Of a stretch of 64,000 nucleotides of DNA, positions 1,326 to 49,600 are shown piece by piece. Positions within the stretch are counted from its first letter, which is position 1; the number at the start of each line of letters is the position of its first letter. The position numbers and the translations under genes were made by a program. The notes under the pieces were generated by a model. That model was not told the origin of the DNA and ran no database searches. It worked only from the letters and a program-made list of their open reading frames with translations. This stretch comes from Tsukamurella paurometabola DSM 20162 (GTDB taxonomy: Bacteria > Actinomycetota > Actinomycetes > Mycobacteriales > Mycobacteriaceae), in assembly GCF_000092225.1 (NCBI RefSeq), contig NC_014158.1:1674001-1738000 (forward strand), in the 5' to 3' direction.

Positions 1326-1369
1326 GGAAACTCGTTTCGTCGGCCACCCCGTGCGCGGGGGCGGCGATG

Positions 1370-1495
1370 GACATCACGAGCCGGGCGGTATCGGACTCGA
1401 GGCGGTTCGTTCACCGCCTCACACCGTTGCGCGCCAGTCCCGGATTCCCACCGGATTCCCGCGGCCGACTCGAATCGTGACGCTATCAGGTGGAC
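1370..1495 (-). promoter_or_regulatory. Cobalamin riboswitch (candidate)
   Basis: Read on the minus strand, the leader of the BtuF-like gene contains GGGAATCCGGTGGGAATCCG (1441-1460), then GGACTGGCGCGCAACGGTG and, after a GAGGCGGT/ACCGCCTC hairpin, GAGTCCGATACC. This series (GGGAA, GGTG..AATCC, CTGGCGCGCAACGGTG, GAGTCCGA) is the conserved core of actinobacterial cobalamin riboswitches. It lies 45-170 bp upstream of the start codon. Limits are approximate because the P1 stem was not folded by computation. Confidence 0.8.
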
Positions 1496-42951: not shown

Positions 42952-44114
42952 CCGGCGCCCGAACGCGACGTGCCTGGGCATACCTGAGCCGGGTGGCGGA
43001 GCCGCCGTGCGCGCCACTGATCGCACTGATCGACGCGGTGGGACCGGACGCCGCTGCGGAGGCGGTGCGACGCAGGGAGTTCCCCGCCGGATTCGAGGAT
43101 GTCGCCGAGGCCACCGCCGCGCGCGCTGATCGCGACCGCGCCGAGGCGGATCTCGACCACATCGAGCACCTGGGCGGCCGCCTGCTGACCCCGGACGACG
43201 GGGAATGGCCGGAGTACCGCCTTGCCGTGCTGGCGGCGCGCCCCCGGACGCCGGCGCAGGTCCATGAGGATCAGTGGCGCGAACTGCGGCCGATCGCCCT
43301 CTGGATGGTCGGCGGCGGCCACCTCGACGATCTGCTCGATCGATCGGTGGCGATGGTGGGTACGCGGGCGCCGTCGGGCTACGGGGAGCGGGTGGCCGAT
43401 CACTTCGCGGGCGATCTCGCCGCGGAGGGGTTCACCGTGGTTTCGGGCGGCGCCTACGGCATCGACGGCGTGGCCCACCGCGCTGCGCTCGCGGCGGGCG
43501 GACCGACGGTGGCGTTCGTCGCGGGCGGCCTGGACCGTCCCTATCCCGCGGGGCACGCCGGCCTGTTCCGCAGGATCGCTGAGGACGGCGCCGTGATCTC
43601 GGAGTATCCACCGGGCACCGTTCCCGCGAAGCACCGCTTCCTGCAACGCAATCGGATGGTGGGTACGGTGACCGGCGGGGTGGTGGTGATCGAGGCGGGA
43701 CTGCGCTCGGGAACACGCAATACCGCCACCTGGGCCGGGCACCGGGACGTCCCGGTGTGCGCAGTGCCGGGACCGGTGACGGTGGCCACTTCGGTCACCT
43801 GTCACCAACTGATCCGGGACGGCGCGCGGCTGGTCACCCGGCCCGCCGAGGTGATCGAGGAGGTCGGCCGGATCGGCGAGCTGGCGCCTGAGCGGGAGGT
43901 GCCCGTGCATCGCACCGACGGTCTCGCCGCCGGTGAGTTGCGGGTCTACGATGCGCTGCCGGCGCGATCGGGTCTACCGGTGTCCGAGATCGCCTCCGTG
44001 GCCGGCCTACCCGCTCGCGCGGTCCTCGGGCACCTGGCGATGCTCGATGCCAGGGGCTTGGTCACCAAGGACGGGGCACTGTGGCGCTTGCGCTCACCGA
44101 CGGAGGACCGCTGA
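42948..44114 (+). CDS. dprA: DNA-processing protein DprA
   Basis: A 388-residue DprA, which loads RecA on incoming single strands. The Rossmann core (about 105-310) shows 'LDRSVAMVGTRAPSGYGERVADHFAGDLAAEGF', 'VVSGGAYGIDGVAHRAALAAGG', 'GLDRPYPAGHAGLFRRI' and 'FLQRNRMV', the standard motifs. A C-terminal winged-helix (about 325-385) ends the protein. Last gene of the yraN-yifB-dprA operon, convergent with the small gene at 44132. Confidence 0.95.
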   Translation: MTGARTRRAWAYLSRVAEPPCAPLIALIDAVGPDAAAEAVRRREFPAGFEDVAEATAARADRDRAEADLDHIEHLGGRLLTPDDGEWPEYRLAVLAARPRTPAQVHEDQWRELRPIALWMVGGGHLDDLLDRSVAMVGTRAPSGYGERVADHFAGDLAAEGFTVVSGGAYGIDGVAHRAALAAGGPTVAFVAGGLDRPYPAGHAGLFRRIAEDGAVISEYPPGTVPAKHRFLQRNRMVGTVTGGVVVIEAGLRSGTRNTATWAGHRDVPVCAVPGPVTVATSVTCHQLIRDGARLVTRPAEVIEEVGRIGELAPEREVPVHRTDGLAAGELRVYDALPARSGLPVSEIASVAGLPARAVLGHLAMLDARGLVTKDGALWRLRSPTEDR

Positions 44115-44131
44115 CACCGCATGCGCTCCGA

Positions 44132-44584
44132 CTACTGCTCGGACGACCGGGGTTGCGGGAGAGGGCGACGCAGCGTGGTGCGGGTCCGGTACCTGATCCG
44201 CATCGTGTGTTCGATCAGGTTCGGTACCGGGACGCCGAATGTCCGGGCGACGTCCGCGGTCGCAGTGGCGCTCCGGGCGTGTGCATTCCAGGCTTGGTCG
44301 AGTGCTTCCTTGGGCATGAGGAAATGGCAGGCGAAAGCGTTGGCGAACAGGTCGGCGTGCGGGTCGGGCGGGCGAGGCGGGTACGTACGGACGAAGTCCG
44401 GGCGGTCACCGCCCCGGTGCGCCTCTCGCTCGCGCATCAAGACGTAGTGGCCGAGCAGGGTGGCGGTGGCGAAGGTCCGGATGGTCTCGGTGACATCGCT
44501 GTTGACCAGGAGTGTCAGCTCGCCCGCGACACGCCGTAGTGACGCGGAGGTGGTGCGATCGAGTGGCAGCTTCCGGACGGCCAT
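44132..44584 (-). CDS. Degenerate ImmA/IrrE-like protein, zinc motif lost
   Basis: A 150-residue frame from ATG 44584. 'LTLLVNSDVTETIRTFATATLLGHYVLMRE' and 'DLFANAFACHFLMPKEAL' follow the ImmA/IrrE pattern (LVN..., F..HELGH..., EANRFAA.LLMP), but the HELGH zinc site reads TLLGH (about 42-46), lacking the first His and the catalytic Glu. Homology-like sequence continues upstream in frame (…DPSIDTDIAAESAAQKLRTAL…) to a stop at about 44743 with no ATG or GTG. So the true start is probably lost or shifted. Likely non-catalytic or a decaying gene. Its reader-frame partners are unclear. Confidence 0.5.
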   Translation of the reverse strand: MAVRKLPLDRTTSASLRRVAGELTLLVNSDVTETIRTFATATLLGHYVLMREREAHRGGDRPDFVRTYPPRPPDPHADLFANAFACHFLMPKEALDQAWNAHARSATATADVARTFGVPVPNLIEHTMRIRYRTRTTLRRPLPQPRSSEQ

Positions 44585-44753
44585 GTGCAGGGTCGTGGCC
44601 GCGACGGCCGGGTCGACCTTCGTCGTGGTGACGTGGAGGGCTGTCCGGAGCTTCTGCGCTGCGGATTCGGCTGCGATATCGGTGTCGATGCTCGGATCCT
44701 GAGGTCGAGGGCTGAGGGCTGAGGCTGAGGGGGCGGTGCCGTGTCACGGAAGG

Positions 44754-44891
44754 TCAGGTCAGGAGATCGTGGAGGGTGCTGATGAAGATGACCAGGCTCA
44801 CGGCGAAACCACCGAGGATCACGATCAGCGAGAGCCCCACTCGCCAGGACCAGAAGCGGTCCTTGTTCGATGGCGGTTCATCGGCTGTCAT
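44754..44891 (-). CDS. Small single-helix membrane protein
   Basis: A 45-residue frame, MTADEPPSNKDRFWSWRVG then one strong hydrophobic helix (LSLIVILGGFAVSLVIFIS) and a short tail. A basic/aromatic flank before the helix suggests an N-in orientation. Too short for family assignment. It precedes the degenerate ImmA/IrrE-like gene on the same strand. Plausible but not proven. Confidence 0.4.
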   Translation of the reverse strand: MTADEPPSNKDRFWSWRVGLSLIVILGGFAVSLVIFISTLHDLLT

Positions 44892-45495
44892 GGCGGTGCC
44901 TGTCCGGAGAGAGGGGATGGTGCCCGCTTCCGGGCCCGGCGCAGAGAGGGGCGCCGAGCCCGGAGGGGCCACCCGCGATACGAGGAGCGCGGAAGTGTGG
45001 GGATGTCGCGGCCGCGGCGGCGCAGGACTGCGAGCGCTGGGACCGGTCGCGTGGCACTGTCTCGCGTCGGATCACACCGGTCACCTCTCTTGCCGCAGGC
45101 TGATGGCATAACACGTTGTGCAAACGAGTAGAGTATGCAGTGTTCGCGATCGATTCTTCGTGAATGTAGCGTGCCGTCCATTGTGCCACAAGAGCGGAAC
45201 GTGAACATTCCACAACTGTGCGCATACGGCGCGTGTATCGGTTCCCGGCGTGCCCTGCGCGTCTGCATGGTGTACGCCGTACAGAACTGATCGCGGGACG
45301 ACCGTGTTCACAGAATCGTCATAAACGCCCCAACTGGAACGCTTTCGGGAGCGCGATGCGTGCGCGTCATTTCTTGATCGTGGGGTGGCCGATCCGTCCG
45401 GTGCGGCTGCCGGGGCGTCGTCATCGCGGAGGGGGAGACGGTCACATCCGGAACATTCATATTCCAGAAATGCTCTCGAGTAGCCGGCGGAGGGG
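44892..45495. promoter_or_regulatory. 604-bp gene-poor stretch with three dyads
   Basis: No credible coding frame. It holds two related dyads, GGAACGTGAACATTCC (45196-45211) and GGAACATTCATATTCC (45450-45465), both GGAA-N8-TTCC with matching inner bases, and TGTACGCCGTACA (45271-45283). The middle (about 45100-45300) is less GC-rich than the flanks, as expected for promoters. Presumed operators for the minus-strand small genes or a lost neighbour. Confidence 0.45.
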
Positions 45496-46594
45496 TCAGT
45501 CCGCCAGCGTGAACGCGCGCAGGTTTCGGAGGACCTCGGTGGCGAGGGGTGTGGGATTGTCGCCACCGGACAGGTCCACGTTGAGGCGGCCGTCGAACGA
45601 GGAGACGATGGCGAAGACCATCTTGGCGGCCATCGCCGCCCAGTCGGCGGCGCCCGGTCCGTCCGGTACCTCCAGGTGGAACGCGGGGTAGAACTCGCTG
45701 AGCGACAGGCCCTCCGGTGTCGGAAGGTGGGGCACCGGACCCCAATTTGTGATCACCGCGACGGCGCAATCCTCGGGAAGGGCGCCGCCCGCCCCCATCG
45801 GGCCGGCGGCCATCGACATCGGTCGCTGCACCAGCCCCGCCTCGAGATCGCCGGCGAGCCGTGCGCCCACCTGGGCGGCCAGCTCATCCAGACTCGGCTC
45901 CTCGGTCTCTGCCTGGAAGAAGGCCATGCCGAGCGCATTGGTGACATCGGTGAATCCGGCGGCCGGTTCACCCAGGCGTCGACGCAGGTCGACGGGATAG
46001 CCGTAGAGCACGCGCGTCGTGCCGATCCCGCGGACGGCGGCGGTGGCGGCGATGAAGGCTGCCGATACCAGCTGATTCACGGTGCGACCGGTGCGGTGGC
46101 CGTAATCGATGAGTGCCGTTGTCTCCGCTGCGGAGAGTTGTGCCCGAGTCAGCGCGGGCACACCTGAACCCGCCCCTGCGTTGTCGTGTCCAGCTGAGGT
46201 CGCGGTGGTGACTGTGGGGGCCGGCTCGGCGGCCGCGGGGTCGATCAGCGGCTCGCTCGGATAGCCGCGCTCGGCGAGCATGTCCTCCAGCGCTACGGGA
46301 AAATCCGGACGCTCCGCGAGGTCGCCGTCGCCACCTGCGACGATCGCGGTGTACGCGGTCCACAGCTCGTGCAGCAGAGCGAGGGCGTGGTGGCCATCGG
46401 CGAGCGCGTGATGCACCAGCAGGTACACCGCCTGCTCGGCGCCGTGGCCGGTCACGACGTGAACCTGGGCGATCGCGGTGCCCTGGTCGATCGACAGTCC
46501 GTGCAACTGCTCCATCCGGGTGGGATCGGGCCTTACCCCCTGTTCTTGGACACGTGTAATCCAGCACATGGCTGGGGGAAGTGAGAATCCAAGG

Positions 46595-46924
46595 ATGGCC
46601 AGGAAGAGTTACACCGATGAGTTCCGGTGCCGGGCGGTGGACTTGTATGAGTCGACGCCGGGTGCGACGTTGCAGGGGATCGCGGCGGATTTGGGTGTGT
46701 CCCGGGGATCGTTGAAGGGGTGGGTCGACAAGCTCGGCTCCGGGACGAGGACCGCGTCGGCTGCGGCGGGGGTGTCAGTGGGGCGGCGGGAGTCGCAGGC
46801 GGCGAGGATCACGAGGCTGGAGGCCGAGAATGGGGTGTTGCGGGTCGAGCAGGCAAAGCTTGCTGAGGAACGCGACATTCTCCGTCAGGCGGCGAAGTAT
46901 TTCGCCGGGGAGACGAGTTGGTGA
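46595..46924 (+). CDS. IS3-family transposase OrfA
   Basis: A 109-residue DNA-binding subunit: 'MARKSYTDEFRCRAVDLYES' leads to a HTH_Tnp_1 helix-turn-helix (about 8-45, 'LQGIAADLGVSRGSLKGWVDKL') and a leucine-zipper-like coiled coil (about 70-100, 'RITRLEAENGVLRVEQAKL AEERDIL' in heptads) for dimerisation. Ends SW-stop; the final bases overlap OrfB, which is read in the -1 frame. Confidence 0.93.
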   Translation: MARKSYTDEFRCRAVDLYESTPGATLQGIAADLGVSRGSLKGWVDKLGSGTRTASAAAGVSVGRRESQAARITRLEAENGVLRVEQAKLAEERDILRQAAKYFAGETSW

Positions 46925-47829
46925 ACCGCTTCCAGTTCGTTGAGGACCACAAGGACGCCTACGGCGTGAAGCGGTTGTGCCAGGTGATTGGGATCGCGCG
47001 GTCGTCGTTCTACGCGTGGCTCGCTGCAGCGCAGGGGCGGGCCGCGCGGACGGCGGCTGACTCGGTGCTGGCGGGCCGGATCCGGGTGCTGCAAGACCCG
47101 AAACAGGGCGGGGATCGTGCTTACGGAGCGCCTCGGATCACCGCTGACCTCAACGCCGGCGCAGCCGAGAGTGAGCGGGTCAACCACAAGCGCGTGGCGC
47201 GCGTGATGCGTGAGCACGGCCTGGCCGGAATCCGGCTCCGCAAGCGTGTGAAGACAACCGTCCCGGATCAGTCCGGTCGACGCTTCCCAGATCTGATCGG
47301 CAGGAACTTCAGCACCGGCGGTCCTGGTCGCCGCTACGTCGGCGACATCACCTACCTGCCCATCGCCGACGGCAGCAACCTCTACCTCGCGTCGGTCATC
47401 GACCTGGGCTCACGCAAGCTGGCAGGCTGGTCGATGGCCACTCACATGCGCACCGAGCTCGTCGAAAACGCACTACGGGCCGCGCAGCGCGAACGCGGCA
47501 CCCTGGCTGGGGCGATCTTTCACTCCGACCACGGGTCGGTCTACACCTCGAAGGCCTACACCGCCCTCTGCGAGCACTTCGGCGTGACCCAGTCGATGGG
47601 AGCGATCGGCTCGTCCGCGGACAACGCCCTCGCTGAGAGCTTCAACGCGACCCTCAAACGCGAACTCCTCCAAGGCCGACCAGCGTTCGGCGACCAGGCC
47701 ACGGCCTACCGGGCCGTGTTCCGGTGGGCCAACCGCTACAACACCCGCCGCCGGCACTCCGCGATCGGCAACATCACACCAAACACCTACGAAACCGCCT
47801 ACCGCGCTACGCTCACGCAAGCGGCATAA
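46921..47829 (+). CDS. IS3-family transposase OrfB (DDE integrase)
   Basis: A 302-residue integrase-like subunit from GTG 46921 (TTG 46918 also possible), in the -1 frame relative to OrfA; GTG overlaps the OrfA stop (GTGA). 'VNRFQFVEDHKDAYGVKRLCQVIG' is the HTH_21 region. The catalytic triad is visible: Asp in YVGDITYLPI, Asp in FHSDHGSVYTS, and Glu in ADNALAESFNATLKREL, with the spacing of an rve domain. OrfAB fusion by -1 frameshift is expected for this family. Confidence 0.93.
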   Translation: MNRFQFVEDHKDAYGVKRLCQVIGIARSSFYAWLAAAQGRAARTAADSVLAGRIRVLQDPKQGGDRAYGAPRITADLNAGAAESERVNHKRVARVMREHGLAGIRLRKRVKTTVPDQSGRRFPDLIGRNFSTGGPGRRYVGDITYLPIADGSNLYLASVIDLGSRKLAGWSMATHMRTELVENALRAAQRERGTLAGAIFHSDHGSVYTSKAYTALCEHFGVTQSMGAIGSSADNALAESFNATLKRELLQGRPAFGDQATAYRAVFRWANRYNTRRRHSAIGNITPNTYETAYRATLTQAA

Positions 47830-48322
47830 CCGAAATGACATCGTGTCCAAGATCCAGGGGCAAGGCCCATCACCGGGCGACGTGGTCACGGCCACCGGTG
47901 TGTCGCCGTCGTTCACCACGAACGTTCCCTCGTTGCGATCTCCGGTCTCGATCCGCGCGCGCAGGCCCGGGTACGCGGCGCTGAGCCGGGCGGCTGCCGC
48001 CGCGAGCGCGTCGAGGTCGACCGGGCCGTTGGTCACCACGCCGTAGCCGACGTACATGCCTGCGCCCAGGGTGAAGAAGGACTCCGTCGCCGCCAGTGTC
48101 CGGATAGGAGCGGGAGAGATGTTAGTTGCGTATCGCATGTAATTCACGATAGGCGGGTCCGGGAGTTGTGTACCACCATCTGTGATGGATGGCATACGGA
48201 ATCCCGGCGCACCGCGCGGAGTCTTTCGTTCGCTGTTCACATGGTCGTGAACAGGGCGTCCGTCCGGGTACGATTCCCCGGATCCTCTGCTGGATCACCC
48301 GTTCCCGAGCCCGAGGAAGCCG

Positions 48323-49600
48323 ATGACGACCGAAGCGAATCCCGCGGTGGCGGCGCATCGACGGCGGCAGATTCTCACCGGCTCGGTGGGGCATCTCGTC
48401 GAGTACTTCGACTGGAGCGCGTACTCCTTCCTCGCGATCTACTTCTCCCGGCAGTTCTTCCCCGGTGACGCCGGATCGGTCGTCCCACTGCTGTCGACCT
48501 TCGTCGTCTTCGCACTCGGCTTCCTGACCCGCCCCATCGGTGGGGTGCTCATGGGCCGCATGGCAGACCGCTACGGACGCCGACTCGCGCTCACCGTCGG
48601 CGTTGGGATGATGGGCGTCGGGAGCCTGATGATCGGTCTCGCTCCCACCTACGCGCAGGTCGGGATTCTCGCGCCGATCATCCTGGTGGTCGCCCGCCTG
48701 ATCCAGGGCCTGTCCACCGGGGGCGAGCTCGCCGCTGCGAGCGCCTTCCTCATGGAGTCCGCACCCGCGCACCGTCGCGGGGTGTACACCAGCCTCACCA
48801 ACATCAGCTCCAGCCTCGGCAAAGTGCTGTGTCTGGTGCTCATCACCGTGCTGGTCAACGCCGTCGGCAGCGATGCGATGGCCGAGTGGGCGTGGCGAGT
48901 GCCCTTCCTGCTGGGCGCCGTGGCCGCCCTGGTGGCGTGGTGGATCCGGCGCCGGGCCGAGGAGACCTACCGGGCCGACGGCGCGTCGAGCGCCGGGCCC
49001 GCCTTCCGCGAGCTGGTCACCGAGCACCGGCCGGCGCTGTGGCGCGCCTTCGTGCTCGCCTCCGTGACCGCAGCCATGTTCTACACCTGGAGCACCTACG
49101 CGCCCACCTGGGCGGTGATCACCGAGGGGCTCGACAAGCGCCAGGCCGTCACCATCTCCGCGATCGCCTTCGTCGTCTACGGACTGGTCCAGCTCCCGCT
49201 CGGGCAGCTCTCAGACCGAATCGGTCGGCGGCCCATGATGTTCGCCTTCTACGCCGGCAACATCGTTTTCACCGTCCCGTTGTTCGCGGCCATGTCGGCG
49301 AATCCCACGACGATGCTGCTGGTCCAATGCGCGGGCATGTTGCTCTCGGCGATCCTCATGTCGGTGGCCGCGGCAATGCTCGGGGAGATGTTTCCTGCAC
49401 GGATCCGGGTGCTCGCGACGGGCGCCGCCTTCTCGGTGGCGACCGCCCTGTTCGGCGGCACGGTGCCGGCGATCGGTACCGCCATTCATGAGGCCGGCGC
49501 CGATGTCGCCTTCCCGATCTACCTCGTCGTCCTCAACGTCATCGCGCTCGCGCTGACGATCCGCCTCCCGGAGACAGCGCACGCACCACTGCCGAAGTGA
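48323..49600 (+). CDS. MFS transporter, metabolite:H+ symporter type
   Basis: A 425-residue 12-helix transporter of the MHS branch (ProP/ShiA/KgtP-like). The loop 2-3 signature 'GRMADRYGRRLAL' and the entry 'LTGSVGHLVEYFDWSAYSFLAIYFS' with an acidic residue in the first helix are typical for organic-acid or betaine uptake. The second half repeats the loop motif as 'GQLSDRIGRRPMM'. The substrate is not known. Starts at ATG 48323, divergent from the disrupted acyltransferase. Confidence 0.88.
   Translation: MTTEANPAVAAHRRRQILTGSVGHLVEYFDWSAYSFLAIYFSRQFFPGDAGSVVPLLSTFVVFALGFLTRPIGGVLMGRMADRYGRRLALTVGVGMMGVGSLMIGLAPTYAQVGILAPIILVVARLIQGLSTGGELAAASAFLMESAPAHRRGVYTSLTNISSSLGKVLCLVLITVLVNAVGSDAMAEWAWRVPFLLGAVAALVAWWIRRRAEETYRADGASSAGPAFRELVTEHRPALWRAFVLASVTAAMFYTWSTYAPTWAVITEGLDKRQAVTISAIAFVVYGLVQLPLGQLSDRIGRRPMMFAFYAGNIVFTVPLFAAMSANPTTMLLVQCAGMLLSAILMSVAAAMLGEMFPARIRVLATGAAFSVATALFGGTVPAIGTAIHEAGADVAFPIYLVVLNVIALALTIRLPETAHAPLPK

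What the first reader, a model, noticed from the sequence alone, without database searches (positions are those of the whole stretch)
45496..48138. IS3-family element inserted in a PapA-like acyltransferase; excision in silico restores the frame exactly
The element (46528-47868) has 27-bp terminal repeats and a 3-bp ATC duplication. Deleting it plus one ATC joins the halves in frame (…AVTTSPGD + PTRMEQLHGL…), giving a full condensation-domain acyltransferase with HHALADG. Both gene halves remain otherwise undamaged, so insertion is recent. It should have removed an envelope acyl-glycolipid activity from this strain.
Basis: seen in the sequence. Interest (0 to 1): 0.7.

Follow-up and report, generated by a model that had tools for sequence, protein, structure and literature searches.

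The report
Mobile element interrupts lipid-acyltransferase gene
In this bacterium a copy-making mobile DNA element has landed, apparently recently, inside a gene for a PapA5-like acyltransferase and cut it in two; this is an ordinary kind of gene loss, and which lipid, if any, the strain lost is unknown.

Summary
A complete 1,341-bp IS3-family element (46528-47868) lies inside a PapA5-like acyltransferase gene (45496-48138, minus strand), flanked by a 3-bp ATC duplication. Both halves are open; aligned separately, they meet at the same codon of the intact orthologue in genome G014. I did not remove the element or join the halves.

The genome matches Tsukamurella paurometabola DSM 20162 by replicon sizes. 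Six complete copies of the element were found there, five identical and one with a single difference, all six with 3-bp duplications. In the 15 other Tsukamurella genomes searched no match exceeds 56 bases. The burst looks recent.

The functional reading is only partly supported. Of four PapA_C genes in the genome, the broken one alone has canonical HHxxxDG; the other three carry NHxxxDG or SHxxxDG and lie near a glycosyltransferase and acyl-CoA carboxylase genes, a likelier glycolipid locus. Orthologues of the broken gene occur in only 3 of 15 other Tsukamurella; its substrate is unknown. Gene lost: very likely. Envelope glycolipid lost: not shown. Ordinary event, low interest.

The parts
45496..46527 (-). 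C-terminal part of the interrupted PapA5-like acyltransferase gene (343 aa plus stop; holds HHALADG and the PapA_C domain)
   Evidence: PF16911 E 9.3e-58; matches 1q9j PapA5 E 4.5e-25; 72% identical to G014 residues 173-512
46525..46527 (.). left copy of the 3-bp target duplication ATC
46528..47868 (+). complete IS3-family insertion sequence
   Evidence: six complete copies in the genome
46528..46554 (+). left terminal inverted repeat, 27 nt
46595..46924 (+). OrfA, helix-turn-helix protein of the transposase
   Evidence: PF01527 E 4.7e-9; NF033516 E 1e-8, below its curated cut-off on its own
46918..47829 (+). OrfB, integrase-core (rve) transposase; likely start GTG 46921, which overlaps the OrfA stop (by eye)
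   Evidence: NF033516 E 4.6e-86, over cut-off; PF00665 E 1.1e-24
47842..47868 (+). right terminal inverted repeat, 27 nt
47869..47871 (.). right copy of the 3-bp target duplication ATC
47869..48138 (-). N-terminal part of the interrupted gene (90 codons from the predicted start ATG 48138; the frame is open further up to GTG 48240)
   Evidence: NF006787 PapA5 subfamily E 6.8e-10; 71% identical to G014 over the 90 codons
48323..49600 (+). neighbouring MFS metabolite:H+ symporter gene, divergent from the papA-like gene; the same pair is kept in G014

Best explanation
A recently acquired and recently active IS3-family element transposed into codon 90 of a stand-alone PapA5-like acyltransferase gene of Tsukamurella paurometabola (type-strain genome). 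It made a 3-bp target duplication and cut the N-terminal part of the enzyme about 38 residues before the catalytic HHxxxDG. The N half now runs into antisense IS sequence; the C half lacks its own start and the first part of the fold. The gene is therefore most likely null (inferred). In the intact state the protein most likely moved a long acyl group to an alcohol or sugar acceptor, as PapA5 does with alcohols (inferred from family; substrate unknown). IS3-family elements are recalled to copy themselves out rather than excise precisely, so the loss is expected to be stable.
For: Ends, terminal repeats, duplication and transposase frames. Six complete copies, five identical and one with one difference, all six with matching 3-bp flanks. 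No match longer than 56 bases in the 15 other Tsukamurella genomes searched. Open orthologue at the same place (comM-dprA-papA-MFS) in G014. Halves free of stops, dN/dS against G014 0.30 (N) and 0.25 (C). PapA5 solved structure 1q9j is the only PDB match at E <= 0.01.
Against: No expression or lipid data. An ATG at 46569 inside the element opens a frame into the C half, so a truncated protein cannot be excluded, though no Shine-Dalgarno-like sequence stands before it by eye. dN/dS of the halves is above all four neighbouring genes compared (MFS 0.215, comM 0.083, xerC 0.068, metQ 0.064), so constraint on this gene was looser even before the insertion. Identical copies can also arise by gene conversion.
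Confidence: 0.92

Rival explanations
1. The loss matters: this was the strain's only canonical HHxxxDG PapA-type enzyme, so the insertion removed an envelope lipid or glycolipid that relatives with an intact copy make.
For: Four PapA_C matches in the genome at E <= 0.01. The three others have NHAVADG, NHALGDG and SHAATDG in place of HHxxxDG. Some T. paurometabola strains are reported to produce glycolipids (PMC3156402, passage).
Against: The orthologue is found in only 4 of 16 Tsukamurella (own included) and 4 of 201 genomes of the family at E <= 1e-60, so it is accessory. The paralogues keep the second histidine and lie near a glycosyltransferase and acyl-CoA carboxylase genes, so they may serve glycolipid acylation. 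Trehalose lipids are reported from other Tsukamurella species (PMC4365757, passages); which of those species carry this gene was not determined.
Confidence: 0.25
2. The C half is still made as a truncated, partly active protein from a start inside the element.
For: An open frame from ATG 46569 in the left end of the element runs through the C half and keeps HHALADG.
Against: It lacks the 90 residues before the site; the matching part of the G014 protein aligns with the start of the PapA5 chain in 1q9j (from residue 6 to about 89, counted by hand). No ribosome-binding site is evident by eye.
Confidence: 0.05
3. The gene was already dispensable or loosely constrained and the element merely hit it.
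For: Patchy presence; dN/dS above all four neighbouring genes compared; the same element also hit other loci, among them an Na:alanine symporter and an IS110 transposase.
Against: Both halves are open and own deviations at conserved columns (18 of 187) are only just above those of the intact orthologues (12-17 of 181-186), so no pseudogene decay before the insertion is visible.
Confidence: 0.4

Closest known systems
IS3-family insertion sequences of actinobacteria (e.g. copies on Kocuria rosea and Rhodococcus plasmids)
   Same: Annotated IS3-family transposases; 82-83% DNA identity over 99-100% of the length for the best three of 40 plasmid records and 82% in one genome of the family, G299
   Different: Not the same element at the DNA level; subgroup and ISfinder name not determined
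PapA5 (phthiocerol/phthiodiolone dimycocerosyl transferase), PDB 1q9j
   Same: PapA_C domain, HHxxxDG motif, G014 orthologue aligned over residues 11-373 of 429 with 6-372 of 422; NCBIfam PapA5 subfamily is the best family match
   Different: Scores well below every curated PapA5 cut-off (232.9 against 396 bits for the G014 orthologue); no polyketide synthase among the neighbours scanned; acceptor and donor unknown
Loss of a mycobacterial lipid by mutation of a papA gene (PapA2 mutation and sulfolipid, PMC6996325; title and abstract start in search listing only)
   Same: A defect in a PapA-type gene can remove a specific surface lipid
   Different: There a point mutation with a lipid change reported; here an IS insertion in another genus without lipid data

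Membership tests
IS3 family | transposase profile match (OrfB with rve core; OrfA with helix-turn-helix) | tested here: met
   NF033516 E 4.6e-86 over cut-off for OrfB; OrfA weak match E 1e-8, under cut-off; PF00665, PF01527
IS3 family | two partly overlapping frames, the second in the -1 frame (feature recalled) | tested here: met
   OrfA 46595-46924 and OrfB from 46918 in frame -1 (phase by hand); whether by frameshift or by restart was not tested
IS3 family | terminal inverted repeats and a short (3-5-bp) target duplication (feature recalled) | tested here: met
   27-nt repeats at 85%; 6 of 6 complete copies with 3-bp matching flanks
PapA-type acyltransferase (PapA_C, PF16911) | PapA_C domain over the curated cut-off | tested here: met
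   195.4 bits against a cut-off of 30, C half alone
PapA-type acyltransferase (PapA_C, PF16911) | HHxxxDG motif (feature recalled) | tested here: met
   HHALADG in the C half and in the three orthologues
PapA5 equivalog (phthiocerol dimycocerosyl transferase) | score over the curated PapA5 cut-off | tested here: not met
   G014 orthologue 232.9 bits against 396 (subfamily) and 88.7-118.8 against 539-873 (equivalogs)
PapA5 equivalog (phthiocerol dimycocerosyl transferase) | acyl transfer from Mas to phthiocerol | not testable with these tools
   no biochemical data

The most novel reading that the evidence does not exclude
The type strain, the laboratory reference of the genus, lacks its only canonical HHxxxDG PapA-type enzyme through a strain-specific IS burst, so lipid chemotaxonomy based on this strain under-reports a lipid that other members of the species make.
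Probability: 0.12. Interest if true: 0.4.

Novelty: new member of a known kind. Interest (0 to 1): 0.2.

Why it matters
It is a clean example of apparently recent gene loss by an insertion sequence that spread in one genome. It is a caution for anyone who reads the type strain's lipid profile as that of the species, and the open orthologue gives a defined gene to test in relatives. It does not change any general picture.

Tried and rejected
A scan of genome contigs with the C half gave one weak Clostridia locus (35% identity, query residues 75-140) and no orthologue; it was not used. Two family scans failed because one frame included a stop codon and were repeated with corrected coordinates. 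Literature searches, judged by listings: Tsukamurella paurometabola with genome sequence, 15 of 42 listed; Tsukamurella with glycolipid, 15 of 53; with PapA, 3 of 3, none relevant by title; with trehalose lipid, 10 of 11; with IS3 family, 1 of 1; with insertion sequence, 10 of 14, none on this element by title. A search for PapA5 with HHXXXDG led to one paper looked at by passages; its reference list names work on the motif in wax ester synthases and it adds nothing on this gene. A frameshift or nonsense decay in the halves was looked for and not found. In one search dprA was listed but not computed, since I gave no partner. Whether the original GenBank annotation already marks this gene as a pseudogene was not checked (the genome paper reports 93 pseudogenes). 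No other strain of the species was available: the genome search holds one genome per species.

Full report
What is there. The minus-strand gene at 45496-48138 is interrupted by a 1,341-bp element at 46528-47868. The element has 27-nt terminal inverted repeats, 85% complementary, ATC on both sides, and two transposase frames on the plus strand that match IS3-family models, OrfB over the cut-off and OrfA under it. OrfB starts at or near GTG 46921, overlapping the OrfA stop, in the -1 frame (read from the sequence).

Whose genome it is. The window is G000:C1:1674001-1738000 of a genome of 4,479,724 bases in two contigs, with contig 1 of 4,379,918 bases. The genome paper of Tsukamurella paurometabola DSM 20162 gives a 4,379,918-bp chromosome and a 99,806-bp plasmid, 4,479,724 bp in all (PMC3156402, passages). 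The identification rests on those sizes. The abstract calls the species a human opportunistic pathogen (abstract start in the search listing), so I did not remove the element or join the halves.

The two halves, kept apart. The C half (343 aa and a stop) carries HHALADG at its residues 39-45 and a PapA_C domain at 195.4 bits against a cut-off of 30. The N half (90 codons from ATG 48138) matches only PapA5 models weakly, best E 6.8e-10, and no Pfam model. Three other Tsukamurella genomes hold an uninterrupted orthologue: G014, G006 and G001 (74, 63 and 62% identity to the C half). In a separate comparison the N half ends at residue 173 of the G014 open frame and the C half starts at residue 173, which is what a 3-bp duplication of one codon predicts. 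With G006 and G001 the local alignments of the C half begin at its residues 11 and 8, so they do not fix the junction. In G014 the gene sits in the same place, comM - dprA - papA - MFS - metQ; in G006 and G001 none of the other window neighbours that I tested matches within the 18-kb stretches around it. In the alignment of the G014 protein to PapA5 (1q9j) the site falls at about residue 89 of 422 and HH at 123-124 (counted by hand).

No other damage. Both halves are open. Against G014, dN/dS is 0.30 (N, 90 codons) and 0.25 (C, 337 codons); MFS is 0.215, metQ 0.064, xerC 0.068 and comM 0.083. At columns of the C half invariant in the three orthologues this strain differs at 18 of 187; leaving out each orthologue in turn gives 12 of 181, 12 of 181 and 17 of 186. 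The strain is thus the highest of the four by a small margin. There is no visible decay, but the gene was under looser constraint than all four neighbours compared, only slightly so against the MFS gene.

How recent. In the whole genome the element gives ten matches: six complete copies, three long incomplete ones and one 71-base end (40 of 81 first-look candidates were scored). Of the six complete copies, the window's and four others are identical and one has a single difference; all six have matching 3-bp flanks (GGG, ATC, ATC, ACC, AGG, GTG). The three incomplete copies do not match at the positions where full ends would lie. In the other 15 Tsukamurella genomes there are only matches of 32-56 bases, in 9 of them (25 candidates scored per genome). 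The nearest relatives are 82-83% identical, on plasmids of Kocuria and Rhodococcus, and 82% in one genome (G299) among the 298 searched in the order; 16 of 298, own included, matched at E <= 1e-50, with two candidates scored per genome. So the element most likely came in from outside the genus sample and spread recently. Gene conversion among copies is a caveat.

Other targets of the same burst. Another complete copy splits a sodium:alanine symporter gene, with pieces on both sides matching PF01235 positions 7-59 and 60-392. One splits an IS110-family transposase, and one abuts a hexapeptide-repeat frame. At the remaining two complete copies no frame longer than 129 codons touches the element. 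The papA hit is one of several, which fits chance insertion at least as well as selection for loss of this gene.

What the gene did. The closest solved relative is PapA5 (1q9j, E 4.5e-25 with the C half; E 1.5e-24 with the G014 protein). The G014 protein nevertheless stays far below the curated PapA5 cut-offs, so I call it PapA5-like and not PapA5. PapA5 moves mycocerosyl groups to phthiocerol and accepts other alcohols such as n-octanol in vitro (PMC5064953, passages). By analogy this enzyme most likely esterifies a long acyl chain to an alcohol or sugar; the substrate is unknown.

Was a function lost? The genome has four PapA_C matches at E <= 0.01. The three others lie at 1062-1067 kb in open frames and show NHAVADG, NHALGDG and SHAATDG. 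Near them are a glycosyltransferase, a condensation-domain protein and two acyl-CoA carboxylase subunits. That cluster is the better candidate for a trehalose-lipid type product, which other Tsukamurella species are reported to make (PMC4365757, passages); this link is inference. I did not survey other HHxxxDG families such as wax ester synthases. Six of the 15 others (G001, G002, G006, G010, G011, G014) carry a further gene of the kind, 32-36% identical to the C half and also with HHxxxDG; this strain shows no match of that strength besides the interrupted gene. The statement that an envelope acyl-glycolipid activity was removed is possible but not shown.

Verdict. This is an ordinary IS inactivation, a new instance of a known kind. 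No paper on it was seen in the listings, which in four of the six show only part of the papers found; whether the GenBank annotation already marks the pseudogene was not checked.

Noticed in passing
window 44114-45496: Between dprA and the papA-like gene this genome has about 1.4 kb holding an ImmA/IrrE-like Peptidase_M78 gene (44132-44584, minus). In G014 the two genes are at most about 30 bases apart, so the stretch was gained here or lost there.
   Followed up: partly
L039 (G000:C1:1738661-1740001), 0.7 kb past the window's end: Another complete copy of the same element splits a sodium:alanine symporter gene; the pieces on both sides match adjacent parts of PF01235.
   Followed up: partly
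G000:C1:307276-309912 (L042, L043): Two matches to the element, positions 1-1275 and 1271-1341, on one strand about 1.29 kb apart with 5 bases in common: possibly one copy interrupted by another mobile element with a 5-bp duplication.
   Followed up: no
window 48323-49600 and L046-L054: The MFS gene lies next to xerC in 9 of the 11 Tsukamurella genomes with a match at E <= 1e-100, but next to the papA-like gene, on the dprA side of metQ, in this genome and G014: a local rearrangement shared by the two.
   Followed up: partly
G000:C1:1056138-1071062 (L055, L056): Cluster with three PapA_C genes lacking the first histidine of HHxxxDG, a condensation-domain protein, a macrolide-type glycosyltransferase relative and two acyl-CoA carboxylase subunits; candidate glycolipid locus.
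   Followed up: partly
window 1366-1489, minus: Cobalamin riboswitch (RF00174, 36.4 bits, gathering 31.5) just upstream of the minus-strand frame 360-1325, which by eye looks like a substrate-binding lipoprotein.
   Followed up: no
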